A stretch of 64,000 nt of DNA from Lunularia cruciata. Taxonomy: Eukaryota; Streptophyta; Marchantiopsida; Lunulariales; Lunulariaceae. Shown one piece after another: positions 10,807 through 57,483 of this stretch. Every line of letters starts with the position of its first letter. The first letter of the stretch is position 1. Location: positions 18,328,243 through 18,392,242 of the forward strand of contig OX419761.1 in assembly GCA_948567375.1 (NCBI GenBank), written 5' to 3'. The translations under genes and the position numbers were made by a program. The notes below the pieces were generated by a model. It searched no databases. It was not told where the DNA came from and saw only the letters and a list, made by a program, of their open reading frames with translations.

Positions 10807-10875
10807 ACGTTATTTTCATTTGCGTACCATGATTACCTCCACGTCAAGTGACCAGCCTCATTATCCGCACGATTA

Positions 10876-11020
10876 ATGCTTCACTCAAATCCAGTCCGCA
10901 AGATGTGATTTGCGTTGCAGGATGATGCTTAATTTTATCCATCCGCAAAATGTGATGTGCGTCGCAGGAATAATCCTTCATTTAATCCAGTGTGCAGGAC
11001 GTGATTGGCGTCTCCTGCCA
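10876..11020. repeat. Three tandem 49-bp units
   Basis: Imperfect units start at about 10876, 10925 and 10974. Each has a TCCGCAAGATGTGAT-like core followed by GCGTYGCAGG. The third is more diverged. No coding capacity is evident. Confidence 0.75.
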
Positions 11021-19889: not shown

Positions 19890-20348
19890 GATCTCTAGAG
19901 CTAGAAGAATGTGAGTGACATTGACTGTACTCTTTGAGAATTGATTGTTCTCCAATTAGAAACAAGAACAATTGAACTAAGACAAACTAAGTGATTAATG
20001 CTTGATGGATGAGTGATTAATGTATTTGAAAGATTTAGAGAGTATGTTGAGGCAAAATAAGGACATTCAAGACCTAAAGCCACTATATGATGGCATTACA
20101 TCCAATTGGATTCCAATAGATCCATAGAGCTAGAAGAATGAGAAGCACATTGATTGTAGTCTTTGAAAATTGATTTTTCTCCAATTAGCAATTGGAACCA
20201 TTGAACTAAGGCAAAGGTTAGTGATTATTAGTGATTAATGCTTGATGGATGAGTGACTAGTGTAGCTTAAAGATTTGAAGAGTCTAATGAGGCAAAATAA
20301 GGACATCCAAGACCTAGAGCCACTATATGATGGTATTACATCCCATTG
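19890..20348. repeat. Direct duplication of about 220 bp
   Basis: Two adjacent copies (about 19890-20107 and 20118-20348) share AGAGCTAGAAGAATG, TTCTCCAATTAG, GTGATTAATGCTTGATGGAT and GCCACTATATGATGG in order. The second copy has small indels. Function unknown; probably decayed transposon sequence. Confidence 0.75.
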
Positions 20349-20499
20349 ATTATGCTTCATGATGAGGGTTTAGTGAATTTGTGACCAAAGATGCATGTTG
20401 GTAGTACATACATTTGATTATTAGTGCATACAATCTAAGGATTTGTGACTTTGAGACCATGGATGCAAGATTAGTGAATTCACTACCTAGGAGCTACAT

Positions 20500-22900
20500 A
20501 TCCGGGCAATGATTATGATCCGGGCTACTTATTGATAGATGTTTGGGAATTAAAATTTTGAGAGTATGTGGGTATATAATTAAGACCACAAATTTGACCC
20601 CTTGCCAAACACTTTTTTCTCTAGGGACATTGGAGTGTGAATTTGGGAAGCAAGAGCAGAAGAAACCACACACTTTAGGACCCACCTATGTGGAATCTAT
20701 TTGTAAGGCATTTGGGATTGTAACCAACCCATTAGTAAGGCAACTTCTTGATTTCAATGATAACTCTTTGTACTTCCTACATGGCAAGGTGTTTCTTGGA
20801 GCAGAGGAATTGTTTGAGATAGAAGTAGGCATCATGCATGGGCACTAGTAGGTCTTAGTTGCACCTTATGATAGTCACAACAAAGTCTTCCTTGATGAGA
20901 TGGCATGGTTTGTGAGAAGTGGAAATTTTGAGGTGATGTTTGCACTAGAGTGTGCAAGAAGGCAGATCTCCTTTGGTAGCTGATACACTCTCTTCACATG
21001 AATCATTTGTTTCTATTTGTAGGTGTTTGCAAGTTATTCCTCCGTCTTCTTTTTTGGCATTGGACGTATGGCATCAATTTTGGGCACTTTCATATTTTTG
21101 TTTATTGGGTTTCTTTGTCTCCTTAGGTTGGGATGTATTTCCAAGATAGTATTTTATGATATCTCCATTTCATTCTTTGGCACGGGGAGCTGAAGGGACT
21201 ACTATAAGCAATGCTCCTGATCTAGCACCTCATACCCCTTATGTGTACTTAGGGAGTATATCTCAATGTTTAATTTTTCAACACACTCTCATAACAATTA
21301 AGGTTCACCTTAATGGAGTCATTTCCATCCCTTTACCACATCCTATACCTTCCTTAAGGATAGAACCTATCCAAGATGATTCTCTTATGTAGATCTTGCA
21401 CCTATAAACGCATTTTTTCCTCATCCTCCCACCACATGACATTGGGTATGTGCTAGATGCTTATGAAAGTGGGGTGAAGGCACATCTCTGCCTACTCCAT
21501 GCTACCCTCTTTGTACTCCTATCCTCTTGTTACAAGCACTACCTGACTCATATGCATGATTACACTCTCTAGATCCTATTTAAACTTTCCTTCTAGTTTT
21601 CTTGAAACCTTGTACTTTTATTTGCATTCCATTGTTCCTACAACATCTAGAAGGCTCCATGCTCTCCTTTATTTTAAGTTCTATCTTGGTATATGAGAAA
21701 AGGAGAGATGTTTCTACTTGGACTCTATTACCTATCTTTCCACAATGGATTTTGCTGCTTCTTGTTGATGAGAGTGCCTCTTGGATTCACTAGTTTTCTA
21801 GGGAAGATTGGCTAGTTTGATTGAAGAGTATACCATTTGATCCCAAGTAATAGCTTGATGGATTATAGACTCCTATAGCCCCATGCTTTGGAGCTATTGC
21901 CTCTATCATTCCTTAATGCTAGTTAAAGCAGGGGAGTACAACAAGCAACCCAAAAAATATCACCCTCGAAACCAACACCCTTACTTCATTGATACTTTAT
22001 TGGCTCTATAGACTCTCCATCCATATCTCACATATAACCCTCCTTGTTTTGTCCATGACTACTATCTAGAAAATGAGCTACTACTTAGGGAGTCCTTCTT
22101 TGCTCTTGCTTTACTCCAATCTCCATGTTTTTTGGCAAGGGGCCTTTGGGATTGGTTTTGTGATTGTTTCTCTCATTACATACTAGATTCTAGTTTCCCT
22201 CCTCTCTTTGCTTTTTGCTAATACATTGCCTTGATTCTAATACCTCTAGGTGTTGCTTTTTTGTTTGATGCATCTTCTCTCCTTGCTCTATCAAAGTAGA
22301 TTTCCAATATTTTCTCCTTGGCTATTAAGGATGTTTTATGGTGTTTAATTACATGCATTATATGTTTATAACTTCATTGCTCCTTTTTTATTGTATTCCA
22401 TATGCAATGGCTACTTTGGGAGTTATAAGATGGTCATTATGAGCATTAGAGCCTCATTGGACATCCATCCTAATTGGGTGGTAGTCCAAGTGGATGTCTC
22501 AAATGCTGTCAATATTATTTCTTGTCCAACCTTGTTTTGGGCTATACTTTTGACAAGGGATCAGATCCCTTCCTTGATCCACTTTGTGCATACATTTTAT
22601 GGTATTGAGATACTATTAACATATAACTACCATATTGCTACAAAGGAGTTCATGCAATTGGTATCTATTTAGAGCATATGCCATGGAGATCCCTTGGGAG
22701 GATTATTATTTGCCATAATGCACTACACAACTTTTCATGAGGTTGCAATTGCATTTCCCTTGTGTTTTTTCCTTCCATCTCAAATGATATCATGTACCCT
22801 TTGAAGGGTGTAGTTTGAGATGTGTTGGCAGAGGTCATCTTCTCCTATAGGAGAGCCCAAAACCCTTACTTGAAATTAAAATCTTGGTGTGAAATCTAAG
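20500..22900 (+). pseudogene. Decayed reverse-transcriptase element (non-LTR type suspected)
   Basis: Broken plus-strand frames resemble a reverse transcriptase. At about 22,414-22,700 there is SIRASLDIHPNWVVVQVDVS followed by NA, resembling the catalytic-Asp A box of RT. About 70 codons later comes HGDPLGGLLFAIMHY, resembling the B box (QGDPLGG...F) of non-LTR retrotransposons. Upstream, 20,540-22,300 holds several open patches, including one of 101 codons, that I cannot assign. Stops and frameshifts are frequent and no FADD-type box is intact. The RT reading rests on the two short motifs, and the non-LTR class is inference. Confidence 0.5.
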
Positions 22901-23147
22901 GGAGTGAGAGTTGTACATGGATTTCAAACCTTGCATTTATAAATCCATTGGAGATAAAGGATATAGTGCTTGGCTTTACGCCTCTCTTTTGATTGAGATT
23001 TTTGCTTCGCTTTGGAAGAGTTAACCATGGACCTCCACCTACAACTAGGATTTCCATATCTAGTGCATTTAGAGCTACCAAAACAATGCATATGTGGTTT
23101 TACATACAACACATAAGGCATCCACATTTTACACTAGATGGTGAGCA

Positions 23148-23569
23148 TGTTGAATATGTTTTAATATTCTATTTAGAGATGAAAAATAATTGGATTTAAC
23201 AATAAGTGATCTACATGATCTATGGTAGAAATATCTTCTAGATGGTAGCTAAGACAACTAGATTTTGGGTTTAACTTAGGTCTTTGTGAAAACTAAGATA
23301 GGACAATGAAGAAGAGATACATGAGAAGAAGACTATAAAGAACTTATGAGAGTTTACTCATTCATTGTTGAGAGTTTTTAAGAGGTGTCTCAAAGCACTT
23401 GATTGCTGAGTCAAAATAAATGAACTGATATAACAAGAGTGTAGAAGCTTCAATAAAAACAGATTGAGAGTGTTTGGCCATGGATGTAGCTTCCAATTCT
23501 AGAAGTGAACCACACATATCTTATGTTATCACAATGAGTGGGTATTCTTGATTGAGTGAAGTTACAACA
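23148..23569 (+). repeat. 5' LTR of the copia element
   Basis: Begins TGTTGAATATG and ends GTTACAACA. It aligns along its length with 44517-44956, including GTTTGGCCATGGATGTAGCT and TATCTTCTAGATGG. The pair is clearly diverged, so the insertion is old. Confidence 0.85.
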
Positions 23570-23571
23570 AG

Positions 23572-23584
23572 AAGTATCAGAGTA
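23572..23584 (+). other. Copia primer-binding site
   Basis: AAGTATCAGAGTA lies directly after the 5' LTR and resembles TGGTATCAGAGC, the usual plant initiator-tRNA-Met primer-binding site. Confidence 0.7.
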
Positions 23585-23628
23585 AGGTTAGATTGATAAG
23601 AGGTTAGCATATAAAGATATTCATAATG

Positions 23629-24187
23629 TGTAATGTTTTGAGGATGGTAGAACTTTCAAGAGAAATATAGGAGAAGAAACATCAAGCTTCACACTCAATA
23701 GTCTGATGCATCAAAGGAACACCTTGTCTTTATTATATAACAAAGAGGATTCCCTCAAAGGAAGCTCTACCCTTGGATCAAATATAGTGATTGGTGACAT
23801 GTTAGGAAGCTCCACTCTTAGATTAGTTGCATAGATTAGTGATATGTCAGTTCTTGTCCTATATAGTTGGTCAAACAAGTTTGACAAGAGGGAATATTTA
23901 GAGAATCTTCCTATAAGGAGCTCAAAATTATATTGGGGAGAAAGCAAGTCTTTTCTCTCAAATAAGGATTATTTCTTTTCATTCTCAAGGCATAATTCCT
24001 CTGGTTTTGGCCTCCAAAATTGGCATTGAAGTTTTTAAGGTTTTTAAAGGTTTTTTTTGGCTCCTACCCTATTAGTGGAAGTAATTTTGGTGACACCTCT
24101 ATCTAATCTACTTAGTCTATCATATATAATGTCCTTCTAGATGTTACCAAGCCGAATTTCACCTTTAGATAATATGTCTTGCTAATG
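23629..24187 (-). repeat. 3' LTR of the old gypsy element
   Basis: On the plus strand it starts TGTAATGTTTTGAGG and aligns with 39242-39836 and with the solo LTRs at 41,023, 45,559 and 57,980. Shared blocks include CTTGGATCAAATATAG and TAGATGTTACCAAGCC. The terminal GTATTACA is lost. Confidence 0.75.
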
Positions 24188-24229: not shown

Positions 24230-26458
24230 TGCTCAAAATATTTCACTAACACTGGTGCATGGATCAAGTAACCTACTAGCTCCCATGTTGCCTCATATAG
24301 TGGGTATCTTTTTGAATGAACAAGATATTCAACAAGTAGATAGCGAGTACCATGGATGCATTTTGGGAAAATGAGTTCAACTTCACATTCCTCCGTTCCA
24401 TCCATGAGTGTTGGACAAGGTCAAATTTCTTGTATGGAAGGAAAGTGTGGCAATTGGGGTGCATACCTAGGTAGTAATGAAACATGGAACACTAGATGGA
24501 TCTTCATATGTGGTGGTAGCTCAAGGTGATAGGCCATTGTACCAATTTGTTAAAGGACTGGAAAGGGCCCAATAAAACAAGGTCTAAGCTTACAAGGGCT
24601 AACTAATGCAAGCTTGGTTGTGGAAAACCAAAACATGATCCCTAACATTGAACTCTATGTGCTGACAATGTGCATCTACATACTATTTTTGTTGATTTTG
24701 GGCAATCTTCAACCTATGCTTGGTGTTCTCCATACCTTGTTGGATTCTAAAAACAAAAGTGTTGACCGTGTTAACCTTGGTAGCCACCGGGCAGATCTTC
24801 ATCAAACTCAAATGTGTGAAAGGATGCTCTCCATACATAATAAAGAATATTGTGACCTATATGGATGCATTCATTCAATTAGTATAGGAAAATTCCACCT
24901 ATGGAAGTAAGGTGTCACACTCTCTTGCTCATCCAAGGTAAATTCTTAGAGCATGTCCTCAATAGTGTGATTATCCTGCTTTGTTTGTCCATCAAGCTAT
25001 GGATGGTAAGTTGTAGACATGGCCAATTTGGTTTTGAAGATGCCAAAGAGTGTTCTCCAAAACAAACTAGTGAATTGAATGCTTCTATTGATGACTAGCA
25101 CTCAAGACAAGTCATGGTGAGAAAAGATTGCATCTAAGTACAATTGAGCTAATTGTCAAGTAATCACATCCTTGGTGGTAAAACGTACATGAATCATTTT
25201 GGTAAGTTGGTTGAAAAAGACTACAATAGAGTCAAACCATACACTGGCCTTGGGCAATTCACAAACAAGATCCATGCTTACATGTTCCCAATGTTGTGTA
25301 AGAGTAGGGAGTGTGAAGGAATCAAGTGGAGGCTTGATTTGAAGCTTGATTTGGTTGATACAGTAGGCAGCTTTGAACATATTCCATTTTATCATGTTGC
25401 TCATCTTGGGCCAGTAGCAATGGCATTTGATTGCATCTAAGGTCTTGTCCATTCCAATGAGACCTACAATGGCAAAATCATGATATTCTGCTAGGATTGT
25501 GGTTCTTATGTCTACGGCCTTTAGGACCCATAGCTTGCTATCAAAAAAGGTGAGTCTTTGTGTATTGGTGACGCCTTTGGATGAACAAGCTCCTACAATC
25601 TATGGGTTTTTTTTTGTTGCAACAAGAATCCTAGGCCAAAATTCTTGGTTTATCTTGACTACCAAATCTTGATCTTTATTACCAAATTGTTTGCCATAGG
25701 CATTTAAGTGAAGGCATTTGCAAGTTGCTTCTTGCCTTCCACATATGTAGTCATCATCTTGAATCATTATCTTCACGCTGCCCGCTAAATCTATTGATGA
25801 GATAGATATGTTTATGTCTCAAGGTAGACCAAAGGTTTGTGGTCTATCTCCACTACAAATGCATTCTTGCCAAGATAGTGCTTCCAATATTTGGTTGGAA
25901 AGAAAATGACCAACTCTTTTTGTTTGGTGGTGTGATACTTGTGTTCAACCAATAATAGCATTTGAGAGAAATATGCAACTAGGTGTCATCCGTCATGTCA
26001 CTCTTCTTGTAGGAGTGCTCTTATTGCTACACTTGATGCATCTATAGCCAACTTGATTGGACATTTTGGGTTATACCATTTCAAGATAGGTGCATGTAGT
26101 AATGCATATTTCAATTCTAAAAGACTAATTCTTGTGCAATTCTCCATATCACTTCTTCCCTTTGCCAAGTAGTGCCATTAGAGGTTGTGCAACCTTGGGG
26201 AAGTCCTTGATAAACCAACAATAAAACCTCATCAATCCCAAGAAACTCTTGAGTTGGGTCTGATCTGCTAGAGCATCCCATTTTTATTTGTTTGAATTTT
26301 GATATCTTATGCTTTTACTTTATGCCCCAAGGAGTCTATTTCAGACTTGACAAACTTGCACTTTCAAATTTTGGCATACAATTGATTTTGTTGCAAAATC
26401 AAGAGGACTTCTCAAAGATGTTACTTGTGCTTGGTCATCATCATGTTGTAGATTAAGA
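24230..26458 (-). pseudogene. Old gypsy element: RT end, RNase H, integrase, chromodomain (broken)
   Basis: Reading the minus strand from 26,458 downward: the residues just after the RT active site (DILIYN), then weakly preserved RNase H. Next is an integrase zinc-binding and core region at about 25,450-25,150, with HWEHVSMDLVCELPK and FDSIVVFFNQLTKMIH. The integrase C-terminus follows (GPFQ at about 24,570). Finally a chromodomain-like segment reads YLVHSKRYPLYEATWE at about 24,260-24,330. Many stops and frameshifts make it inactive. The C-terminal chromodomain places it among chromoviruses. Confidence 0.75.
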
Positions 26459-26467
26459 TGTCTGTCT

Positions 26468-26568
26468 TGCGTATATACATTGCTACACAACATACATCGC
26501 TGTCAACATCATACACTATAAAAGCACAACTCACACATAAGTCATACATAGACTCTAAAGTGCCACAA
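26468..26568 (-). repeat. Extra copy of the U3 start beyond the 3' LTR
   Basis: These 101 bp match 27025-27125, the start of the 3' LTR, with one difference (ATTGC versus ATCGC). They lie outside the 3' LTR yet inside the target-site duplication. Both copies contain the TATA-box-like CACTATAAAAG in plus orientation. Five bases (TGTCT) between the target-site duplication and this copy are unexplained. Confidence 0.85.
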
Positions 26569-27125
26569 TAATCAGATTGCTTAACACTCTCAACTCAACT
26601 CAACTCAGATCAGTACTTGATCTGTCACTCTATAAACTGCCAACAACTGGGCACTGATTACAGTCAAGCCACACCCACTCAAGCATAGAGAATCCAGGTG
26701 ACGCTCGCCGGCCTTTGTCCACCATAGCCAGGAACTCGAAGGCTCAACATCAAAGAAGTGAGCTCTCTGGAGCTCACTTCGAAACTATACCCCCTGGACT
26801 CGAGCTAGCCCTGAAACCCTAACGGTCCCGCTGACGGCACACTCGACGGTGCAAACGGTGCAAAGTGACGGTGGGCCCCACCGTGAAGTCAGTACCCCGA
26901 ACACGAAATCTAACCATCGAAAAGTAGTCCTTGAGAAACAGCTAGAATAACTCTAACTACCATCACTGGAACTCCAGTGTCCGAGCATCTAGATGCGGAA
27001 CTACAAATGGCATGACAGCTATCGTGCGTATATACATCGCTACACAACATACATCGCTGTCAACATCATACACTATAAAAGCACAACTCACACATAAGTC
27101 ATACATAGACTCTAAAGTGCCACAA
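26569..27125 (-). repeat. 3' LTR of the methyltransferase gypsy element
   Basis: On the minus strand it starts TTGTGGCACTTTAGAG directly after a purine tract and ends CTGATTA, missing the final CA seen at the other LTR. Positions 26569-27017 align without gaps to 35900-36348 with nine transitions. An 11-bp inverted repeat with a 4-nt loop (26755-26780) lies within it. Confidence 0.85.
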
Positions 27126-27135
27126 TCGCCCCCTA
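27126..27135 (-). other. Polypurine tract of the methyltransferase gypsy element
   Basis: The minus strand reads CTAGGGGGCGA immediately before the TTGTGGCAC start of the 3' LTR. This position defines the true U3 start and shows that the 101-bp duplicated piece is U3 sequence. Confidence 0.65.
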
Positions 27136-27292
27136 GCTGGCGGTTAGGTCCCTCTAACTCCAGATAGCCATCTACTCTAAGTATATGGTATACCCTCTAA
27201 TGGGCAAAGATCAGGAGGCCGGGTGCTATGGAGCCCCATCGTTAGTCGCCTGTCTGCAATCTATACCATATAAAGAATGAACTAGCTATAGG

Positions 27293-30200
27293 TCAAGTAC
27301 ATCTAGGACATAACCATTGTCCCTGAGGAACCACCGTGAGGGGAGGAGTCATACATGCCATATGCCATCCTCTCAAACAGCTATCACACACCAACATAGT
27401 AGCAGCTCCACCAGAAGAGCCACATAACATACACCTCAAGCCTGCACGTACAAGTGCCAAGCTTGGGTCCATAGTACCATCAATGTTTGGGAGGTGGCAT
27501 GGCGCACAATTGCGCACATGATCCTTCCAAACAACACCATCACGTCCTTCTAACACAAGGACTCCAGATGGCAAAACCTCACGCACTCTCAAGACAGTGC
27601 GGCCTGTAGAAACATCAAGTGTCGTCGGTGCTGTCTGCTGTAGATATACATAGTCGCCTGGATGAAATCGACGGATCGAGGGTCTATAACTTCCTCCTCG
27701 AATGGTAGCATAGCGTAAAGTATCTCTATGCTGAGCAATCGCCAAGTTCTCGAAGGCCATCGGCATCACTCTCCGAAAGATCTCTGCCCACTGAGAACAT
27801 GTGCTCATCCATACATCAAGGTCATCCAAGTCCAAAACTACAGTAGCATCTCGACAAATGGCTGCAGGTAAATCTGGATCTCGTCCATAGAGTAGAAAGT
27901 ATGGAGAGAAGGATGCTAAGGAGGCTTGCCGGCTGAACCGATAGCCCATGGCCAACCAAGGTAACTGGAGATCCCAATCTCCCAAGTGGCCTCTCTGCAA
28001 ACCATACTTTCGCAATCCTCTCTTCACCGTCTGAACCACTCTCTCTGCTAAGCCATCTGCCTCAGGGTGATCTCGGGATGTAGTACGATGATCAATCAAA
28101 GCCTTGTCACACAAGACCTGAAACTCTCCCAAGAACTCTGTACCCTGATCAGTCAAAACCTCAGCTGGTGCACCAAAATGACTAAGAACTCGATCCAGGA
28201 ACGAGTAAGCTGTCCCTTCACTAGACTTGTCAGGAAGTGCCACCAACTCAATCCACTTGGAGAAGTGCTCCACCATCACCAAAACATACCGATGATGTCT
28301 CACAGTCAGCGGTAAAGGTCCGGCGAAGTCCAAACTCCAACGGTAACCCAATCCCATGATAGGTAATGGGTGTAACTGTGGTGTAGGAGCATTGAATGAT
28401 GCTCTAACTCGGTCACAAACCATACATCTGGCAACAAACTGCTGTACCTCGGTCTGCATACCGCGCCACCAATAATGACTTTGAAGTAAGCTATATGTAC
28501 GCTTTACTCCAAAATGTCCTAGCTCCTCATGAGCATGACGGACCAACTGTGGTCTTTGTGATGGAAGTGGTACTACTTGCACTCTACCATCCTCCCATAC
28601 ACGCAAAAGGTGTCTACCTTCCAATTTGAACCGTCTGGCTCGCTGAAGAACACGGTCTCTCTCCTTGGCCCCAATTGTGCCACCCACAACACCAGTGCAA
28701 AGATAGTCCATCACTAAGACATCATCATGAATGTCTCGCTGAACTGTACCAATATCTTCACTCTCTAGATCTGTGACCTCAATAACTCCTCCTGTATGCG
28801 TTGAGAGAGATACCACCAATGTCTCTGCAAATATACACAGAAAGGCTGATGCATGCCAACCTGGCACCATCTCCTCATCTGTCTCACCATGCCAACGTGC
28901 TCCGGTCTGATCCTGCTGGCTGGGACATGGGTTTCTACTCAACCCATCTGCATCACGGTTCACCACTCCAGGTCTGTGAACAACCGTGAAATCATACTCC
29001 TGTAAAATCAGAGCCCATTGTGCAAGCTTCCCTGAAAGCTTGTCGGACTCCATCAACCACTTCAGCGGCTGATGATCAGTGATGAGAGTGAAGGGGTTAC
29101 CAAATAGATAACATCGGAAATGTGCTACTGCCCAAACTGCTGCCAAGCACTCTCCCTCATATGAACTATACTTCACCTCCGCTGAATTGTTGGAGTGACT
29201 AGCATAGGCCACCACAAACTCCTTCTCCTCATCATCATGTTGGGTGAGCACCGCTCCAAGCCCCAACATACTCCAATCAGTGTGAACCTGAAATGGTCGT
29301 CCTCTGATCGGTCTCCTCAAAATAGGAGCAGATGTCAACCTCTCCTTGAGCTCTACAAAAGCTCTCTCCTGCTCATCTCCCCAACACCACTCCTGTGTAA
29401 GCTTGGTCAGCTTCGTCAAGGCCTTGGCAATGGCACTAAATCCTCTAACATAGCGGTGATAGAAGTTCGCCAACCCAAGGAATGCTCGCACTCTGCTCAC
29501 ATCCGTAGGCCGAGGAATACGTGCAATAGCCTCCACCTTGGTCTGCTGAACACCAAGTCCTCCGGGGTAGATAGTGTGACCCAAATACTCAACCTGCTCA
29601 TGGAAGAACCTACACTTCCCAGGATGTAATTTGAGTCCATGAGATCTCAACCTCTCAAACACCTCCAACAACTGTCTCTCATGCTCCTCCACTGTAGTGC
29701 TATATACCAAAATGTCATCAATATAGCACCGAGCAAAATCCAGTCCAGCTAGGATCCTATCCATGACCCTCTGGAACTCAACAGGAGCATTCTTCAACCC
29801 AAATGGTAAGAATCTCCACTGATATAACACATCCTTGCCGTGAGGATCAATAGCCAAAAATGCTGTCTTGGACTTATCTTCCTCCCTGATCGGCAACTGA
29901 TGATATCCCGCTCGAAGATCCAAAGTACTGAAGACCTTTGCATGCCCAATCGCATCAAAAATCTCCTCCGGTGTAGGCATGGCATACCGATCAGCCTTGG
30001 TCTGTCGGTTGATAGGACGGTAATCTCCACACATCCGCCTATCTGTATAGTTGCTATGCATATCCTTCTTGGCTGGCATCACTGTCGTTGATGCATACTC
30101 TCCATGTGAAATCTCCACCAAACCAGCCTCAAAAAGGTCACTACTCCGGCTCTGAATCAATGTCCTCTCCATCTCACTATATCGATAAGGACGTCGGAAA

Positions 30201-30406
30201 ACAGGTGTGTTGCTAGTCAGCTCAATCCGTATACCAGGTCCCTTCAGAGCACCCAAATCCTTCATACTGAATGCAAAACAACTCGTGTGACTCCTCAAGA
30301 ACCTCCAAACCCTCCGTCTTTCCTCTCTAGTAAGCTTGGGTCCAAGATCTGGCTCCCAAGTATCCTCTGTAACTATAGTAGGAGTGGAAGACGTACTGAC
30401 TGGCTG
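27293..30406 (-). CDS. Gypsy Pol: reverse transcriptase, RNase H, integrase, PHD finger
   Basis: The frame is open from just after a TAG at 30407-30409 to a stop near 27293. Counting from the Met at 30298 gives 1,001 aa. RT: RMCGDYRPIN (88-97), catalytic Asp in STLDLRAGYHQ (127), CYIDD (191-195). RNase H: TDWS (Asp341), YEGE (about 381-383), TDHQPL (Asp408). Integrase: HHCC zinc site (His590, His595, Cys625, Cys628) and Asp657, Asp717, Glu752, with the canonical 35-residue spacing. C-terminus: a PHD finger with Cys956, Cys959, Cys971, Cys974, His979, Cys982, Cys997 and Cys1000 (C4HC3), plus Trp995. No chromodomain is seen. The frame is part of a longer Gag-Pol and the listed Met is unlikely to be a true start. 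Domain calls are secure; activity is untested. Confidence 0.93.
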   Translation of the reverse strand, partial: QPVSTSSTPTIVTEDTWEPDLGPKLTREERRRVWRFLRSHTSCFAFSMKDLGALKGPGIRIELTSNTPVFRRPYRYSEMERTLIQSRSSDLFEAGLVEISHGEYASTTVMPAKKDMHSNYTDRRMCGDYRPINRQTKADRYAMPTPEEIFDAIGHAKVFSTLDLRAGYHQLPIREEDKSKTAFLAIDPHGKDVLYQWRFLPFGLKNAPVEFQRVMDRILAGLDFARCYIDDILVYSTTVEEHERQLLEVFERLRSHGLKLHPGKCRFFHEQVEYLGHTIYPGGLGVQQTKVEAIARIPRPTDVSRVRAFLGLANFYHRYVRGFSAIAKALTKLTKLTQEWCWGDEQERAFVELKERLTSAPILRRPIRGRPFQVHTDWSMLGLGAVLTQHDDEEKEFVVAYASHSNNSAEVKYSSYEGECLAAVWAVAHFRCYLFGNPFTLITDHQPLKWLMESDKLSGKLAQWALILQEYDFTVVHRPGVVNRDADGLSRNPCPSQQDQTGARWHGETDEEMVPGWHASAFLCIFAETLVVSLSTHTGGVIEVTDLESEDIGTVQRDIHDDVLVMDYLCTGVVGGTIGAKERDRVLQRARRFKLEGRHLLRVWEDGRVQVVPLPSQRPQLVRHAHEELGHFGVKRTYSLLQSHYWWRGMQTEVQQFVARCMVCDRVRASFNAPTPQLHPLPIMGLGYRWSLDFAGPLPLTVRHHRYVLVMVEHFSKWIELVALPDKSSEGTAYSFLDRVLSHFGAPAEVLTDQGTEFLGEFQVLCDKALIDHRTTSRDHPEADGLAERVVQTVKRGLRKYGLQRGHLGDWDLQLPWLAMGYRFSRQASLASFSPYFLLYGRDPDLPAAICRDATVVLDLDDLDVWMSTCSQWAEIFRRVMPMAFENLAIAQHRDTLRYATIRGGSYRPSIRRFHPGDYVYLQQTAPTTLDVSTGRTVLRVREVLPSGVLVLEGRDGVVWKDHVRNCAPCHLPNIDGTMDPSLALVRAGLRCMLCGSSGGAATMLVCDSCLRGWHMACMTPPLTVVPQGQWLCPRCT

Positions 30407-30409
30407 CTA

Positions 30410-32780
30410 CACTGGGCCCTTGGGAGCAATGGTGTCATGCTCCCGACCACTAGAGGTCCCAACCTCTGTGTGAAAAACTCCCTCCACTCTAGCTGCAAGC
30501 TCCATACGTCCTCTGGCTGCATCCCATGTGGACCAAGGGTGTAATCCAAGTAGCCCACGCTCACCTGGATGGACTCCAAGTAGACCACTCTCCCTAGTAG
30601 CTACTGGATGTGTCCCAAGAATACCATGTCCACTCGGTCCATCGCTCCCAGCATGTGCCTGAATCGTCTCGATAGGCACAGGGCTCACAAGTGTCCGAGT
30701 GGTGATGCCTATCAAGCGCATCCTACGCTGCTCTGCCAAACCAAGGCTCACAATCCAGGTCAAACAGTTCAGGTCCATAGCTTGACCTAACACTTGACGC
30801 CTGGATGCCTCTGACACTACTGGAACAGCGGTAATACCGGTGCAAAAACCCATCGCCCGCTCTCTCTCATCAGCATTGGGCTCCACCAACTGTTGTAACT
30901 GTGAGTCCCAAACAAGTCCAGGTCCTCCCTCTCAAAAAGCATGAGCCTGGGAAACTCATGAGTGTGGGAAATGCAGCTCTAGGCTGTCCAACTAGGTTCA
31001 CCACTGCCATAGGTGACCTATCAGCCACTACCACTGTCTGAGACTGACGTCCAGCATCCAAGATATCATCAACAAGAATGTGGTCTAGTCGCTGAATCCC
31101 ATCATAACTACGCTGTAGAACCTCTCTGGGTAAAAGGTTCGTCCACCAAAGACGAAGATGATGAGCCCGTGATCCCACTCTGGCTGCATCTAACAATACA
31201 GCAGGTCCCATCCAAGAATGGACCTGATGTGTACTCGCCACCACTCTAGTGCGAGAATCACCCATCAATGGAACGTTCTCCAAAAGGTAAGCTGGAGAAA
31301 CAGACTGATGAACCTGGAGATGTCGTAGTATCCGTAACATCTCCCAAAACACACCAGAACAAGGATCCTGAAGACCCAAACCGCGGCCCGCACGTGTATG
31401 TCCCTGACATGGCCATCCAGAAATCACCAAGTGAATAGGCCCATGTCTCTCTAGGTCATGCGCCCCCAATAAGGAAATGTCTCCTGGTAAGGCCTTCTGG
31501 TAACCTCTGACTGCTGACATCGGTAATAACTCCGGATACCGATAGGCCAAGTGTGCCACATGATGTAGAGATGAGACTCGCCTAGCAGTCTCATCTCTCT
31601 CTACATACAAGTACCTCTGTACTCGGATACCCGCCTGTAACACCGTAGCTAGTCCGGTGCTGATCCCACCAAACAACTCTAATAGACATATCCCCTCTAC
31701 TGGATACTGCCAAGCAATGAGTGTGGTATCCAGAGGTGTCAAAGCAATCGCCTCTAGAGGCTCATCCTCACACTCATCCCCTGATGGTACGAAGGCTCCA
31801 CTCCAAGCCTGCTGCACCAACTGATCTGCATGCTGCTGCAATGCCTCCTCTGAACTCCACAATGGAACATCCAAGGTGGATGGAACAATCCCACTCGTAC
31901 TCCATAGCCGAGTGATCTCCTCTGGTACTGGAGTATCCTCTGCATGGGCGTTCCCCTCCAACAAGTCACCAGGCCAAGTGACTGCACCGCTAAAAGCCAA
32001 AACTGATGCTGCCATGGTCCCGGATTGTAGTGAGCCAAGACTGCCACTACTAAAGCGTACTGGTAGGCGACATACCCGTCCCTCACCAGACTGCCAACCA
32101 GGTCTATAAGAGGCTGTCTCCTCCCAATAGTCAATACTGAAACCCATAGGGTATAACACTGCTCCCCCAACTAGCACATCATATGACTCAGTTATCGTCG
32201 CAATAGCCTGAGCTCTCACCACTGAGCTATCAGTCGGATGACCAGGCTGAACCTGGACAACAAGCTCCCCACGTGTGATGTACTGTGTCGAACCACCACC
32301 TAGAGATGTCTGGATCTGAAATGGACACCTTTCCACATCGGTCTTCCGTAACTCCAGACCAACAACTGCAGCCTTCCCCAACATAAGGGGCTGCGCACCA
32401 GAGTCTAACAAGACTCTCTGTGGTGTATAGACCTTCCCTGAAGGTCCCACCAAACAAAAGATCCCCCTCTGGTTATCCAATAGGACAACACCAGGTGTAA
32501 ACCGCACTCTCTCAAAGGCCAGTCTAGCTGGCAACTCCTCTAGTCTAGCCGCTGCTGCCTGCCATAAACCATTGGTCGCTGAACGGATCCCATGCTCCTC
32601 AACCAAGTCAGCTCCACTACCAACCACCTCTGCTCTAGTAGTAGGAATTGCACCATCCCTACTCTCACACAACGTGGCAGCCAACCAGAACACTGGGGCT
32701 GGGTCAACTCCCAATGTAAACATGTCACTAGCTGAAAATAAAGGATGCCGCATAATCAGCTGAGCCGCCCCCAACATCAT
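30410..32780 (-). pseudogene. Retropepsin plus cytosine-5 DNA methyltransferase region of the gypsy polyprotein (frameshifted)
   Basis: The first frame (32780-30870, 636 codons) holds the protease site LLDSGAQ at 125-131. From about residue 363 it holds a C5-methyltransferase: motif I LLELFGGISTGL (366-377), motif IV ISGWPCQG with catalytic Cys458 and AGRGLGLQDP beyond it, motif VI LLENV (499-503), and motif VIII SRAHHLR (537-543). The domain then passes to another frame (30889-30410), which carries ADERERAMGF and LGQAMDLN, matching motifs IX/X. The frame change at about 30,930-30,960 therefore falls inside the enzyme. Motif order is conventional, as in DNMT3, DNMT1 and bacterial Dcm, and not rearranged as in plant DRM. 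A DNMT3-like origin is my best guess; Dcm-like is the alternative. The expected reaction is methylation of cytosine C5 using S-adenosylmethionine. Confidence 0.85.
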
Positions 32781-32810
32781 GCTAGACTCAGTCTGTGTAG
32801 TAGCAGGTGG

Positions 32811-34652
32811 CTAACTAGCAGGTACTCCATCAGGTACTCCATCACCACCTACCACACCTGCACTGGGACGTCTAGGAACCATGGATGTCGTCTGCAATGC
32901 CTTAGATAGCGTGAAAGACTGGGGAAGTCTGACCTGTCTCCCAACCTCTCCTCTCTGTGGGTCCAACTCCACTAATGCTCCTCTAGGCTCTGGAGCACGT
33001 ACTGCACTCCTAGTCACTGCTGCAGATGCATCCACCTGTGCTGCTCCGCACATGAAGTCCAAAGCATCTCTATCACCAGCATATGAGGTGGAAGCCTCAG
33101 CACCCGAATCTGATCTCCTCTGAGCAATAGCCATACTAGCCAATCACTGCTCCAACTGCTCAATCCGAGTAGCCATAGTTGTGTCAGAAGTAAGGGCAGG
33201 TACTGCACCCCTACTAGGTGTAGATCCTCTACCACCACCTCTACCACCTCGTCCTCCATGAACTGGAGCTCCTCTACTACCTGCCATAACAGCCCTACCA
33301 CTCCGTAACTCCGGGTGTAGGTCAAAACACCGGTCACTAGTGTGACCAAATCTGTGGCAATGCTCACACTGCCTCTGTGTTGGCTGTGATGCACCAGAGG
33401 TATCAGGTCCGCTGCCCTGAGTACACTCTCTCCTATGGTGAGGTCCACCACCAGTCCAACAAGCAACACCACCACTCACTGGCTGCTGCTGACCCGAAAA
33501 TGAGGGTAAGGGTCTAACTCCACTAGGCCCTCCACTCGCTCCATAGGATCTGGGCTGTCCACCCTGTCCTCAAAAACCAACTGGGCGTGGTGCACTCTGC
33601 TGCACTCTAGAAGAAGTCACAACCGTGGATGAGGTCTCTCTACCAAATCCAGCTGTCACCACTCTCTCCTCCACCATGTTGAGCTCAATACGCTCAGCCA
33701 AACCAAAGACTACTGCCAAAGTGGGCGAAGTAGCCTGCAACAACGTAGCATCACGAACTCTACGTCGCAACTCCCTGTCCAGTATCCCATACCAAAACTG
33801 GACTGCCTGGGCCTCAGTAACTCCCTGAGTGAAATTGATCAGCCGCCTCATGCGAGTGTATGCCTCGCGTAGGCTCTCTCCAGCCTTCCGCTGGAACTCC
33901 TGCAAGCTCCTCAGCTTGTCAGTCCGCACTCCCTGGTAGTTCTGCCTCAAACATAGGAAGAACTCCACCATGGGGTTAAACCCCGGTACCACACCACCTC
34001 CTGCAGCGGTACCTCCACTCGTAGTAGCACTATCTCCAGCTAGTGCACCTCCACTAGCTCCACCAACACTACTCGAGCTAGAACTCGTGGGTACAGCCGA
34101 TCTACTCCTGGCCACCGAGCCTGAAGTGATGGAGACATAGTGTGGAGACCAATACTGTCTCCATAACTCAATCTCCTCCAAATGAGCTCTCCTGAACTCA
34201 TGGTAATCATCCATCGGTGGACCCTCCAAGTGCTGAAACAACCCCTTCCATGCCATGAAAGGTGTGAACAAAGTCGGGTTCCGCATCTACTGCAGATCAC
34301 ACCAACTATCGAACTCCTGGATGAAGTCATCCAACTCAATGGTACCCACTGTACCAGAGTAACGCCTAGGGCCTTTGGAGGCCCCATAAATCTCATCCAT
34401 GTCCCACAACAACGGTGCGGACACACCAAGTGCACTCTCAACTGAATCAGCTCCTATGTCGAACTCCAACTCAGAGTCAATCTCCTCCCTCACTGGGACC
34501 TGAGATACAGGCTGATACCGAGCACCACTCCGAGTAAACCCACTGCGTACTGCAGGGCTAACTCCTCTGGAATCTCCAAAGAACTCCGTCGTGACCACGT
34601 AACTGCAACAGCAAACCCGAACCACCAACTGCAACCGCAAGTACCCCACCAA
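32811..34652 (-). pseudogene. Gag region of the methyltransferase gypsy element, interrupted by stops
   Basis: One frame covers Gag and runs into the protease frame, broken by TAG (34287-34289), TGA (33570-33572), TGA (33144-33146) and TAG (32811-32813). The capsid-like part (34286-33570) has the usual gag features: MAWKGLFQHLEG near its start, then SLQEFQRKAGESLREAYTRM and FWYGILDRELRRRV. A serine/glycine-rich linker lies between. A zinc knuckle CEHCHRFGHTSDRC (33368-33327, CX2CX4HX4C) is followed by a glycine/arginine-rich segment. The true start codon is unclear. The stop after CDLQ is also present in the second family copy near 62,029. Confidence 0.85.
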
Positions 34653-35897
34653 ATGCCAACACCACCACGTGCCAACACCAACTAAACACCACCCACTAAT
34701 GTAACTCTACCGAGATAACTACACTAGGGGAAGGGCAACCTGTAACCTGCCATCATAACACGCACTCTCACGGTCTACAGGTCATCACTTCATGCCTCAC
34801 CGGAGAGAAACAAAGGTAGTCTGACTGGTCATCACTCCAGCCTCACCACCGAGAGCACACCAGAGCACCAACGCTCAAAAGTCAAGGCACCTCACACAAA
34901 CGTGGTGCACAAACAGGAAGCAGAGAATGGAGGGGATCCAATCACAAGAAATCTAAACGAAAACCCTCCATCTCATAACACAACACGAGACTGACTCTGC
35001 CACCATTTGGCATTTGACATAAGAGTAGTTCGTATCTAAGTCCTAAGCTACCAGGATCACCAAGAATGGGATCAAACTGCCTCTCCTAGCCAAAGCTACA
35101 TGTGTATAGATAACAGTGGCACAGTCACTATGACAACAAGTGAGGGTGGACCAGTTGGCTAGGGCACCAGTCTAAGAACAAGAGATCTAGGGGTCAAACC
35201 CTGTTGCGCACAATCTAGCAAGAAAGGCAGATTTTGCCAACCAATGACCAAGATCTACACTAAACTAGCTAGCCTCACGCCAGCAAGCTGGCTTGCTGGC
35301 CCTTCTGGCCCTTCTAGGCCTTCGTAGCCTCTCATAGCCCATAGCCCTATGCCTCGAAGCCTCGAAACGCCAAAATTCAGCCAGATGAGGAGGTTCGAAG
35401 TGGCAAAACTAGCAAAACTTCTCCAAATCTGGCCAAACAGCGAAACTCCTCCAATTCTGGCCCAAAATCTGACGTAAATCTGATGTAAAATCTGACGTAA
35501 ACCCTAAAGATGGATGTCCGCCAAATCCCCCGCTAACTTTCCACTCGAGCCAAATTGACAAAACGGGTTTTTCCAAATCACAATTTCATGAGAAGAGCTT
35601 TCCAACTCCACCTTCAATTTCACTTTCTGAGCCCAACTCGCAGCAAATTGGTCCTGCCTTCACCTCCTGAGCTCAAAATCACAACACTACTCGAAAATTG
35701 CTCCTTCTTTGCTCGAAATTTGGCCAGCGCTTCTGCACACCGTCCGCCTAACTGCCAAATTTGCATCAACTACACGAGCTTCTGCACACTAGGGAAACAT
35801 AGAACCTGAATCGAGCTACCACGATCCACCGAGCTTGGAGATACCACCAACACTCAACGTTCCTGCACCCGATTTCCCCCTGACTTCACTTCTCTGA
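34653..35897 (-). other. Long leader between 5' LTR and gag of the methyltransferase gypsy element
   Basis: About 1.2 kb without a convincing coding frame. Directly after the LTR end (GATTACA) the minus strand reads TCAGAGAAGTG. Together with the LTR end this gives ATCAGAG, a partial match to the initiator-tRNA-Met primer-binding site TGGTATCAGAGC, so the primer is uncertain. A related leader is present in the second copy (60,482-61,830). Confidence 0.6.
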
Positions 35898-36348
35898 TGT
35901 AATCAGATTGCTTAACACTCTCAACTCAACTCAACTCAGATCAGTACTTGATCTGTCACTCTATAAACTGCCAACAACTGGGCACTAATTACAGTCAAGC
36001 CACACCCACTCAAGCATAGAGAATCTAGGTGACGCTCGCCGGCCTCTGTCCACCATAGCCAGGAACTCGAAGGCTCAACATCAAAGAAGTGAGCTCTCTG
36101 GAGCTCACTTCGAAACTATACCCCCTGGACTCGAGCTAGCCCTGAAACCCTAACGGTCCCGCTGACGGCACACTCGACGGTGCAAACGGTGCAAAGTGAC
36201 GGTGGGCCCCACCATGAAGTCAGTACCCCGAACACAAAATCTAACCATCGGAAAGTAGTCCCTGAGAAACAGCTAGAATAACTCTAACTACCATCACTGG
36301 AACTCCAGTGTTCGAGCATCTAGATGCGGAACTACAAATGGCGTGACA
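35898..36348 (-). repeat. 5' LTR of the methyltransferase gypsy element, lacking its U3 start
   Basis: On the minus strand it starts TGTCACGCCATTTG and ends CTGATTACA. It is collinear with the last 449 bp of the 3' LTR but lacks the roughly 107-bp U3 start that carries the TATA-like box. The missing piece is found at the far end of the insertion. Confidence 0.88.
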
Positions 36349-36352
36349 TGTC

Positions 36353-38700
36353 ATCTAGGAAAATGATAATAGATTTATCCAAGTATGGACAAAATATATT
36401 ATTAATCAAACTCATGATAGTAGCTAGTACATTGGTTTGGCCAAATGGCATCACAAGGTACTCAAATACCAAGTGACCATACCTTGTTTGGAAGGTTATT
36501 TTATGTATGTCTTCCTCTACAATCCTAATTTGGTTGTAACCGGTCTGTAAGTTAATTTTGGTGAAATGTTTTGCCCCGTTGAGTTGATTGAATAGGTCAT
36601 CTATGTGTGAGGTAAGGGATATTTATTCTTCACCATTTGTTAATTTAGGCCCCAATAGTCAATGCACATACGCATTGTACTGCCCTTCTTCTTCACAAAC
36701 AAGACAACAACCCCATATGGTGATATGCTAGGATGGATAAACCCCTTCTGCAACATATCTTTAATTTGAGCCTTACACTCCTCCAACTCATGAGGTGATA
36801 GTCAGTATGGAGCCTTACAAGGAGATGTCTTCTTAAGACGTATCTTGATTTCATGATCTACTCTCTTTTTTGGTGGTCATCTTGAAGGCAAGTCACACAA
36901 GAAGACATCCTGAAACTCATGGACCATATCTTTCAATCTCTCAAGAATTTGTCCATTGGGCTATGCATTATGGACTTCTCTTATTAGGCCCATGAAACAT
37001 CTATCTATCTTATAGATAAATGATATCCCTATAACATAAAGAGGTATTTCTTGCATATGTGATCTTTTTTTAACCCCAATGATATTCCATTGGTGAGTTT
37101 CTCACTAATTTCTTTCTCCAACTGGCTATGGGGTTGTAGTACTCCATTTATAACATGCCTAAGATTACATCATAATGAGCTAAGCATATCACTCACCACT
37201 CAATCTCTTCTTGATACTCTCCTATATATAGTGCTACCTTTCTAGGTCATGACTCAATCCTCTCTATCTGACCATTAGGTAACTCAACTTCTTTGTTCTC
37301 ATCCTTCTCTAGATCAATCTCCAATCTTATTGCAACAAAGCAAGACAGGAAATTCTTTGTTGCTTTGAGGTCTATCAATATTATTACCTAATTGCCTTCT
37401 AAGATTCCATTCACAACAATCAATTGTGATTTTGTCTGCCCCAACCTTGGTGCACTTTTCTTCTTCCTCCCCTCACTCTTTCTCTTCTCCATTGAACCAA
37501 TAAGGCCGTGAGGTATATTTATTGGAAATCTTTGTTTTCTTAATGATTTTCCTCATCCTACTCTTCAATTTGCCTCTCCATGTTGTTCAAAGATTGCATG
37601 TATGCAGGCAAAGTGCCTCTAAGAAGTCAAGCATGACAATTGATAGCTATGTGCCCAACTTGACTGTAATGTAGCAATAATGCTTTTTTGCTTGAATCCC
37701 TTCTCCTCATGGGACTAAATCTCTCCTTTCTTTGACCCATCCCCATTCTACTTGGATAGGTCATGCTCCTTGATCTTGGAACCAAATGTGCAACATTTGG
37801 TTCTATTTGGTTCCATTTGGTCCCAATCCTATGGAACTGGTCAACCAAAGTGTGGTCTTTCGAGCAAATAATGTTGAGTTAGGACTACCTCTTCACCTCC
37901 TCCAAGCACTTTTGATATTCTTTGAGCACATGCAATGGCATAAAAAACAATGCAAGGGTTTTGTACCATTAATTCTTGGTGAATTTGCTCTTTTAACCCT
38001 CATTTGAAATTATCTAGAGCTTTTGTTGGATTCATATTAGTTATCAAAACTTGCAAATCAAGAAATACCTCCATGTTCACTTGTATGGTGTTCTTTTGCT
38101 TCAACTACCATAGTTGAGTTTGAGCCATCTGCATAGAATCTATAGATTGAAAATTCTTTGGCAGCCCTTCTCGCATTTCCTTCCAAGTGATCTCTCTTCC
38201 TTCTACCAACATTGATCATTCTCAAGAGTTATACCATGTAAGTGCTTTATCAATCTAGTGCCCACGTACAAACACACCTACAAATGATTGGTGATCTCAA
38301 TTGTGAATAATCAAAAGTATTGATTCATTCTTGAAATTCAATTTCCACTACTCCCATAGAACATTGTCCCTTGTAAGGCTTGATGTTACATACCTTCTTC
38401 ATCCATCATAACAATATGGCTTCATTGTTGACCGAGTCATTGCCATGAGTGCCTCTTCAAGTACTTTGGCTACTGGTATTGGGGTTTGGGATAAATTTCC
38501 TCCTTGGATTAGTTGATCGTTCCTAAACATACATTTTTGACTTTGCAATGCCTCCATGGTCATCTTGATTTCTTGGAGATTATTCAACATTCCCTACATT
38601 CCTTGCATTAGATCTTGCAATTATGGATCCACAATTCTTATGCATGATAAATGCTCAATAACTACTTCCTCCTTCAATAGAGAGTTAATATGATCACTCA
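36353..38700 (-). pseudogene. Old gypsy element: gag, zinc knuckle, protease, first part of RT (broken)
   Basis: Minus-strand remnants in gypsy order. Gag at about 38,600-37,900 includes ITWKEMREGLPKNFQSID. A knuckle near 37,650 reads as HIAINCHA in one frame. A protease region follows. RT at about 36,800-36,353 has GSTMRMCIDYWGLN, KNKYPLPHIDDLFNQLNGAK and EYLVMPFGQTN, and stops at FLDD exactly where the younger element is inserted. The next residues (DILIYN) resume at 26,458. Frameshifts and stops are frequent. Confidence 0.78.
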
Positions 38701-43296: not shown

Positions 43297-44220
43297 GTGG
43301 TATCAAAGAAGGAGAACCTAGTTTATAGGTTACAAAAATCATTGTATGGACTGAAATATAGCCCAAGGTTATGTTATAAGAAGTTTGATTCTTTTATGTT
43401 AAAGCAAGGCTATAATTACAACAAGTCAGATTGCTACATATACATCAAAAAGGTGTATGTGACTAGCCATTTTGATTTGATTATCATTGTATTGTATGTG
43501 AATGATATGCTGATTGATATGGAGGATATAATAAAGGTAGAGAAATTAAAAGAACAATTACAAAAAGAGTTTGAGATGAAGAATTTAGAAACTTCCAAGA
43601 GAGTACTTGGAATTGAAGTACAAAGAGATAAGAGCAAGGGAAAACTTTGTATTTCACAAAGAAGGTACTTGGAGAAGCTATTTGTAGGCTTTGGTATGGA
43701 GAGTGCTAAACTTATGAATGTTCCAATAGCAAATCATTTCAAGATATCATTGAAACAATGTCCATCAAACGAGGAAAAGTTAAGATTGATGTCTAATATT
43801 GCTTATGCTAGTGCTACGAGGAGTTTAATGTATGAAATTGGCTATACTAGACCTCATATATCATACATAATGAGTAGATATATGTCAAATCTAGAGAAGG
43901 AACATTGTAAAGTAGTGAAGTGGACACTTTTCTACTTGAAAGGTATAATAGATATTTGCATTATATTTGATATGGAGCAAGGCCAAGGAGTGATGATTGG
44001 GTATGTGGATTCTGATTTTATTGGAGATTTAGACAAGAGGAGGCCCACAATAGGATTTGTGTTTACACTTGCTAGAGGTCCTATGAGTTGGAAGTCTGCT
44101 CTTCAACCTATTGTTTGCTCTTTCAGCTACAAAAGTAGAGTATGTGGCAACAACAACAACAATGAAAGAGGCTATATGGCTACAAGGGTTAGTCAAGGAT
44201 GCTGGAATTTTAGAAAATGA
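43297..44220 (+). pseudogene. Copia reverse transcriptase/RNase H, 307-codon open stretch
   Basis: The frame is open for 307 codons. It starts inside RT with VYRLQKSLYGLKYSPR and has VLYVNDMLI at the active site, where YVDD is expected; the first Asp is replaced by Asn. RNase H begins at GYVDSDFIGDLDKRRPT and continues through GPMSWKSALQ. A frame slip within the downstream TTEAEY region gives an asparagine run encoded by AAC repeats. The missing Asp and broken neighbours indicate an inactive copy. Confidence 0.85.
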
Positions 44221-57448: not shown

Positions 57449-57483
57449 CCTTATTTTACATAGGTGATCTATGTAAAATAAGG
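57449..57483. repeat. Perfect 15-bp hairpin
   Basis: CCTTATTTTACATAG (57449-57463) is inverted at 57469-57483. The 5-nt loop sequence also pairs with the upstream AGATCACC, so two alternative folds exist. Confidence 0.82.

What the first reader, a model, noticed from the sequence alone, without database searches (positions are those of the whole stretch)
30740..31700. Cytosine-5 DNA methyltransferase domain inside a Ty3/gypsy retrotransposon polyprotein
Seen: motifs I (LLELFGG), IV (GWPCQG), VI (LLENV), VIII (SRAHHLR) and IX/X (ERERAMGF, LGQAMDLN) lie between a retropepsin DSGA and a YIDD reverse transcriptase, all on one strand and inside one pair of LTRs with a target-site duplication. Known: capture of methyltransferases by retrotransposons has been reported in dinoflagellates and a charophyte alga, to my recollection; I know no well-described land-plant family with this layout. 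Motif order is conventional (DNMT3, DNMT1 or Dcm), not DRM-like. Inference: the element could methylate its own copies or host DNA, making new insertions silent and so less harmful, or preparing target chromatin.
Basis: partly seen in the sequence, partly recalled or inferred. Interest (0 to 1): 0.92.

Follow-up and report, generated by a model that had tools for sequence, protein, structure and literature searches.

The report
Plant jumping gene carrying DNA methyltransferase
A virus-like jumping gene in a plant genome carries its own enzyme for chemically marking DNA, plus a module that probably reads chromatin; relatives occur in liverworts, peat mosses and green algae, so a kind of element first described in one alga is also present in land plants.

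Summary

(1) The integrase ends in a PHD finger. (2) The termini are not a plain LTR pair but split direct repeats (B-int-A-B-A), as reported for KnitGypsy-Dnmt3 of the alga Klebsormidium. (3) Relatives occur in Marchantia, Calypogeia, Sphagnum and Closterium; in many metagenomic PHD-integrase elements (and, diverged, in Volvox) a related enzyme lies before the integrase, after RNaseH.

So it is a new member of a known kind: the published charophyte elements extended to land plants and a wider green-lineage clade. The best mechanism is self-methylation of cDNA or new copies plus PHD-guided integration; this is inferred. dN/dS could not be tested because no relative's DNA was reachable. Novelty rests on an open-access paper library.

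The parts
26463..36348 (-). whole element, 9886 bp, ends TGTC...GACA, inserted in the RT of another Gypsy element
   Evidence: repeat ends and flanks; flanking RT fragments 25815-26462 and 36335-36855
35900..36348 (-). 5' repeat B1 (449 bases)
   Evidence: 9 differences in 449 to B2, all transitions
26569..27017 (-). 3' repeat B2
27019..27126 (-). short repeat A1, with a purine run (AGGGGG) just upstream
26463..26569 (-). short repeat A2, forms the outer 3' end
   Evidence: 3 differences in 108 to A1 (2 transitions, 1 transversion)
33570..34412 (-). gag core (broken by an in-frame stop)
   Evidence: PF03732 E 0.0077, below its curated cut-off; aligned with Marchantia P0122
32230..32420 (-). 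retropepsin-like protease (LLDSGAQ), approximate, by homology to P0001
   Evidence: PF13650 on P0001, E 0.0012, below its cut-off; alignment
30740..31700 (-). DNMT3-type C5 methyltransferase domain, with a frame change near 30930-30950
   Evidence: relatives' domain:
30407..30409 (-). TAG ending ORF1, followed by CAGCCA (fits the recalled read-through motif CARYYA)
29570..30046 (-). reverse transcriptase core
   Evidence: PF00078 E 1.7e-32
28994..29383 (-). RNase H
   Evidence: PF17919 / PF17917
28064..28561 (-). integrase (H2C2 zinc domain and rve core)
   Evidence: PF17921, PF00665
27299..27433 (-). PHD finger at the C-terminus of the integrase
   Evidence: PF00628 E 1.9e-10; PDB matches; also in Marchantia P0030
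60032..62750 (+). second, older, partial copy (5' repeat and gag); its 5' repeat also lacks A

Best explanation
Shown: this is a decayed copy of a Ty3/Gypsy element whose ORF1 is gag-protease-DNMT3-type methyltransferase and whose ORF2 is RT-RNaseH-integrase-PHD, with split direct repeats; it belongs to a family of bryophytes and algae that is multi-copy in Marchantia. Inferred: the methyltransferase, made as part of the Gag-side protein, is carried in the particle and methylates the element's cDNA (or the fresh insertion). The PHD finger steers the integrase to chromatin with unmethylated H3K4. The new copy thus lands in quiet chromatin already methylated, which lowers its cost to the host and keeps it from being treated as foreign. 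Also inferred: RT-made ends lie at A-start and B-end, and the permuted B-int-A-B-A form arises through a circle opened at the A/B boundary.
For: Domain order. DNMT3 type. Catalytic residues kept: Cys 59 of 60, Glu 65 of 68, Asn 66 of 68 rows (window included) with a letter there, against a median column majority of 65%. Between window and Marchantia P0122 the methyltransferase is better kept (57-78% per 40-residue block) than the spacer before it (55%) and most protease blocks (50-68%); the gag core reaches 75-83%. Multi-copy: ten Marchantia Mp_ locus tags matched, six of them with a methyltransferase match; two copies in this window. ORF1 ends at a comparable place in window, P0122, P0002 and P0005 (38, 37, 32, 39 residues after HPWxxW). 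The nearest solved PHDs include CHD4, KDM5B, DPF3, ATXR5; the residue two before the zinc His is Gly in 55 and Ala in 7 of 62 pattern matches in the 193 proteins, never Trp. Split repeats. In yeast, retrotransposon DNMT3 domains from Symbiodinium methylate CG de novo (PMC5890265, section read).
Against: No activity is shown for this lineage: in the 2018 yeast test the Klebsormidium domain gave no methylation, called inconclusive by its authors because human DNMT3B also failed. Motif IV reads PCQ, not DNMT3's PCN, and Pro is replaced by Glu in 8 and Asp in 1 of 61. dN/dS could not be computed; the conservation counts use rows picked by a match to the domain. The ORF1 end is not uniform: of 13 proteins viewed, P0014 and P0038 end earlier (18 and 20 residues after HPWxxW), P0003 and P0025 end before that motif, P0001 has no HPW, P0124 and P0128 have no LGQA, and gene models P0123, P0126 and P0133 run on into RT. 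PHD specificity is read from sequence and recalled rules. A related element (P0113) does without the enzyme. Only one complete set of termini was seen, and a tRNA primer site was not convincing (8 of 12 matches, as good in 18.8% of shuffles).
Confidence: 0.5

Rival explanations
1. The methyltransferase acts on host DNA or chromatin around targets (or on host defence loci) rather than on the element's own cDNA.
For: The element also carries a chromatin-reader-like PHD finger; DNMT3 enzymes act on chromatin in their hosts (established knowledge).
Against: In the window and in Marchantia P0122 it is encoded on the Gag side, away from the integrase-PHD ORF, which favours action in the particle; no methylation data were available. 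In the algal type it lies next to the integrase, so this argument does not hold there.
Confidence: 0.2
2. The domain no longer methylates DNA: it was kept as a nucleic-acid-binding or structural part of the polyprotein, or as an RNA methyltransferase.
For: PCQ instead of PCN and Glu for Pro in 8 of 61; no activity of the Klebsormidium domain in yeast; RNA methylation was proposed for the LINE case in the same paper (discussion read).
Against: Catalytic Cys 59 of 60 and Glu 65 of 68 kept while the median column has a 65% majority; the fold is closest to DNMT3A/B.
Confidence: 0.15
3. Two independent captures: one into the RNaseH-integrase position in algae, another into the protease-RT position in streptophytes.
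For: Two positions; the RNaseH-integrase enzymes form one clade (100/99) and the pre-RT enzymes are not one clade in the best tree; in a quick 71-row tree DNMT3A falls beside some pre-RT rows (SH-aLRT 84, long branch); MTase-less P0113 is placed beside the streptophyte clade at 90/88.
Against: One pre-RT clade is not rejected (AU p 0.229); enzymes of the two positions are 37% identical, against about 25% to DNMT3A in the structural alignment, and both have PCQ.
Confidence: 0.35
4. Chance motif hits or a host methyltransferase fragment caught by assembly error.
For: This copy is broken, and Pfam alone is weak on it (E 3.2e-6).
Against: A gag or protease followed by the methyltransferase is seen in Marchantia, Calypogeia and Sphagnum proteins, and gag followed by its N-terminal half in Closterium.
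Confidence: 0.01

Closest known systems
KnitGypsy-Dnmt3 of Klebsormidium nitens (de Mendoza et al. 2018, PMC5890265)
   Same: Gypsy domain set with a Dnmt3-related methyltransferase in Pol and, by the Fig. 4 legend, repeats arranged as in DIRS elements (section and legend read). A K. nitens integrase-PHD protein (P0073) groups with the window.
   Different: Here in land plants. 'PHD' has no occurrence in the paper's main text (find), and sections 9-11, which I read, do not speak of a second position. Whether P0073 belongs to the published element was not established; figures and supplements were not seen.
SymbioDIRS-Dnmt3 and SymbioLINE-Dnmt of dinoflagellates (same paper)
   Same: Retrotransposon-encoded C5 methyltransferases; the DIRS ones methylate CG in yeast.
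   Different: Other retrotransposon classes; the paper calls the acquisitions independent.
Plant chromoviruses (Gypsy integrases with a chromodomain; recalled, and named in listings)
   Same: A chromatin-reader-like domain at the integrase C-terminus.
   Different: A PHD finger instead; no chromodomain match at E <= 1.
DIRS/PAT elements (recalled)
   Same: Split direct repeats.
   Different: DDE integrase, no tyrosine recombinase match at E <= 1, short target duplication.
DNMT3A/DNMT3B
   Same: Fold, motif I, motif VIII (AHR.R), C-terminal motifs.
   Different: PCQ instead of PCN in motif IV; no ADD or PWWP match at E <= 1 in the window ORFs scanned.

Membership tests
Ty3/Gypsy retrotransposon | gag, protease, RT, RNaseH, integrase in that order | tested here: met
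   (gag and protease Pfam matches lie under their cut-offs)
Canonical LTR retrotransposon | one identical LTR at each end | tested here: not met
   B1 at the 5' end lacks A, the 3' end is A1-B2-A2; copy 2 also lacks A at its 5' end
Canonical LTR retrotransposon | tRNA primer site after the 5' LTR | tested here: inconclusive
   only initiator-Met tried: 8 of 12, reached in 18.8% of shuffles
DIRS order | split direct repeats | tested here: met
DIRS order | tyrosine recombinase instead of integrase | tested here: not met
   rve integrase found, no recombinase match at E <= 1
C5-methyltransferase, DNMT3 type | closest to DNMT3 by profile and fold | tested here: met
   (on relatives P0001, P0020 and a 15-row profile)
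C5-methyltransferase, DNMT3 type | motif IV PCN (as in DNMT3A) | tested here: not met
   PCQ; Q in 56 of 60
C5-methyltransferase, DNMT3 type | one clade with host DNMT3s of plants | not tested
   no plant host DNMT3 was retrieved; DNMT3A is the only DNMT3 in the trees
KnitGypsy-Dnmt3 lineage | shared ancestry with the published Klebsormidium element | tested here: inconclusive
   integrase tree groups a K. nitens PHD-integrase with the window (15-row clade 100/100); the published element's own sequence was not to hand
KnitGypsy-Dnmt3 lineage | purifying selection on the methyltransferase (Ka/Ks under 0.2 in K. nitens) | not testable with these tools
   no DNA of relatives reached; the genome search not answered (ten calls)
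Chromovirus | integrase chromodomain | tested here: not met
   no chromodomain at E <= 1, PHD instead

The most novel reading that the evidence does not exclude
An ancient green-lineage clade of retrotransposons has rebuilt the two halves of a de novo methylation enzyme in one element: a DNMT3 catalytic domain packed on the Gag side, and a PHD reader of H3K4me0 on the integrase (the job that the ADD domain does in DNMT3). New copies are thus sent to unmarked chromatin and arrive methylated. The clade has kept the enzyme since before chlorophytes and streptophytes split, moving it between two places in the polyprotein, and it integrates from a circularly permuted intermediate.
Probability: 0.2. 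Interest if true: 0.85.

Novelty: new member of a known kind. Interest (0 to 1): 0.6.

Why it matters
Why a transposon would carry the enzyme that hosts use to silence transposons is an open question. The published cases are algae (dinoflagellates, a charophyte). Here relatives are in Marchantia polymorpha, a model plant, at several annotated loci, so selection, activity, PHD binding and methylation of new insertions become directly testable. It also means that 'DNA methyltransferase' gene models in bryophyte annotations can be transposon genes.

Tried and rejected
dN/dS between methyltransferase and RT: not possible. No DNA of relatives was reached. Four viral-contig scans: searches confirmed nothing; one search gave 14 loci and one search gave 17. 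I viewed motif strings of the 14 and the ORFs of one of the 17 (L015); these look like phage or bacterial-type enzymes; the other 16 were not looked at. The genome search 'own' did not complete.

First structure job (P0001, 15 rows) gave pLDDT 47.7 and was not used; the second (P0020, 34 rows) gave 86.1.

Stops as cytosine-deamination scars: of the four ORF1 in-frame stops only one falls where relatives have Arg or Gln; dropped.

tRNA-iMet primer site: not better than shuffles. TAGCARYYA occurs 7 times in the window on both strands, so the read-through idea rests only on its place at the ORF1 end.

Prokaryotic (Dcm) origin: 14 phage-contig methyltransferases score up to 59 bits on the family profile against 75 for DNMT3A fragments. 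That set was picked partly by its AGWPCQ letters, so it is biased; motif IV does look Dcm-like.

Rows dropped: 71 rows entered the quick methyltransferase tree, 34 the careful one; dropped were the Volvox row, both phage rows and 34 other element rows. In one search, 6 of the 19 rows labelled pre-RT carry no protease or gag themselves and were labelled by kinship. The integrase tree has the window and 53 of the 193 proteins; 20 of its 54 rows have an unknown state, and much of its backbone is unresolved.

Families not listed by the fold search are not thereby excluded.

Full report
What is there. The minus strand from 36348 down to 26463 is a 9886-bp retroelement. Its ORF1 runs, in one frame, through gag, a zinc-knuckle region, a retropepsin-like protease and most of a cytosine-5 methyltransferase. 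Four in-frame stops (codons at 34289, 33572, 33146, 32813) and a frame change near 30930-30950 break it. ORF2 (27293-30298 as listed, open up to the TAG at 30409) has RT, RNaseH, H2C2 and integrase domains and ends in a PHD finger (PF00628 E 1.9e-10, cut-off passed).

PHD finger. The nearest solved fingers include CHD4, KMT2D, PHF12, DPF3, KDM5B, KAT6A, KDM5A, PHF21A and ATXR5 (60 of 85 matches shown). From memory, several of these read unmethylated H3K4, and H3K4me3 readers need a Trp two residues before the zinc-binding His. At that position a zinc-ligand pattern finds Gly in 55 and Ala in 7 of 62 matches in the 193 proteins; the window has Gly. I therefore predict H3K4me0 reading; this is inference.

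Termini. The 449-base repeat B is at both ends (9 differences, all transitions; the tenth listed lies one base outside the element). A 108-base repeat A occurs twice at the 3' end, on both sides of B. In element orientation: B1 - ORFs - A1 - B2 - A2. The 5' repeat of a second, older copy (from 60032, about 73% identical over the repeat, 79% over gag) also begins TGTCA and runs from B directly into the leader, without A. So the missing 5' A is unlikely to be damage to one copy. A purine run lies just before A1. A normal LTR reading would be A+B, with the inserted form being a circle opened at the A/B boundary; this is inference from one complete copy. The Fig. 4 legend of de Mendoza et al. says the same kind of thing of the Klebsormidium element: repeats as in DIRS, domains as in Gypsy. 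The flanks are parts of another Gypsy RT.

ORF1 end. ORF1 stops at a comparable place in Marchantia P0122, in P0002 and in Calypogeia P0005 (37, 32 and 39 residues after HPWxxW; 38 in the window). Of 13 proteins viewed the others do not add to this: two end earlier after the motif, several end before it or lack it, and the gene models P0123, P0126 and P0133 run on into RT. In the window the stop is TAG followed by CAGCCA, which fits the tobamovirus-type read-through motif CARYYA (recalled). None of the four other stops has it. It is a single case.

Relatives. Three protein searches gave 59, 63 and 103 proteins, 193 distinct in all; two of the searches scored only the 7995 candidates sharing most words. 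Named hosts with a methyltransferase match: Marchantia polymorpha, Calypogeia fissa, Sphagnum troendelagicum, S. fallax, S. jensenii, S. balticum (27 residues only) and Closterium sp. NIES-53/54 (N-terminal half); Volvox reticuliferus has a partial, diverged one. Klebsormidium nitens appeared with a PHD integrase fragment only. Ten Marchantia Mp_ locus tags matched, six with the methyltransferase and four with the protease alone. Of the 193, 38 show PR-MT, 11 GAG-PR-MT, 11 RT-RH-IN-PHD, 5 RT-RH-MT-IN-PHD, 2 RH-MT-IN-PHD and 10 MT-IN-PHD (Volvox among these); the rest are shorter fragments or mixed gene models. So the enzyme has two places: before RT (seen in one protein in P0011, P0123, P0125, P0126 of Marchantia and P0133 of Sphagnum), and between RNaseH and integrase (seen in seven metagenomic proteins).

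Trees. In the integrase-PHD tree (54 rows) the window lies in a 15-row clade (100/100) with Marchantia and Klebsormidium. Of the other 39 rows, 17 have the enzyme directly before the integrase, also on the deepest branch under midpoint rooting; 2 (P0113, P0091) have RNaseH and integrase without it between, and 20 are unknown. P0113, a full PHD-Gypsy polyprotein without the enzyme, lies beside the 15-row clade at 90/88. In the methyltransferase tree (34 rows) the RNaseH-integrase enzymes are one clade (100/99); one clade of pre-RT enzymes is neither found nor rejected (AU p 0.229). In the quick 71-row tree DNMT3A, on a long branch, falls beside some pre-RT rows, so a single origin of the element enzymes is not shown. 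One capture with relocation and two captures both remain possible.

Mechanism. Shown: domain content, order, conservation, termini. Inferred: Gag-side synthesis puts the enzyme into the particle, where it can methylate cDNA; host maintenance keeps the mark; PHD directs the integrase. De Mendoza et al. discuss cDNA methylation, protection from editing or recognition, and slowing of transposition as possible benefits. They found CG activity for the Symbiodinium DIRS enzymes but none, inconclusively, for the Klebsormidium one.

Literature. Eight searches of the open library (listings capped in some, e.g. 20 of 570 and 20 of 166 papers) gave one paper that I recognised as being about such elements, PMC5890265 (outline with abstract, sections 9-11 and passages read). 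PMC12344493 (passages read) mentions DNMT3 in retrotransposons of streptophytes and dinoflagellates, citing it. The passages seen of PMC5784723, PMC9516144, PMC10952607 and PMC6453930 do not mention element-borne enzymes in bryophytes. Most subscription papers and bioRxiv are outside the library, so this is not proof of absence.

Verdict. A real and well-supported feature; a land-plant member of a published kind, with added anatomy (PHD integrase, two positions of the enzyme, ORF1 end before RT).

Noticed in passing
window 60032-62750 (+): Second, older copy of the same family: 5' repeat and gag with frame changes; no match beyond 62750.
   Followed up: partly
window 25815-26462 and 36335-36855 (-): The element sits inside the RT of a different Gypsy element (nested insertion).
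   Followed up: partly
window 4569-8898 (-): Parts of an ABC transporter gene (PF00664, PF00005), probably a host gene.
   Followed up: partly
window 43297-44220 (+): Ty1/Copia-type reverse transcriptase fragment (PF07727).
   Followed up: no
window 8001-12000 against 20001-24000 and 56001-60000: CpG observed/expected swings from 0.96 to 0.07 and 0.03 within the window, as if some stretches had long been methylated and others not.
   Followed up: no
P0100 residues 894-948 (metagenome protein): A weak Tudor-like match (PF21743, below cut-off) after the PHD finger: this algal-type element has a longer, perhaps chromatin-binding, C-terminal tail.
   Followed up: no
P0182, P0183, P0186 (Closterium): Motif IV reads GWECQG: Glu for the Pro next to the catalytic Cys.
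   Followed up: no
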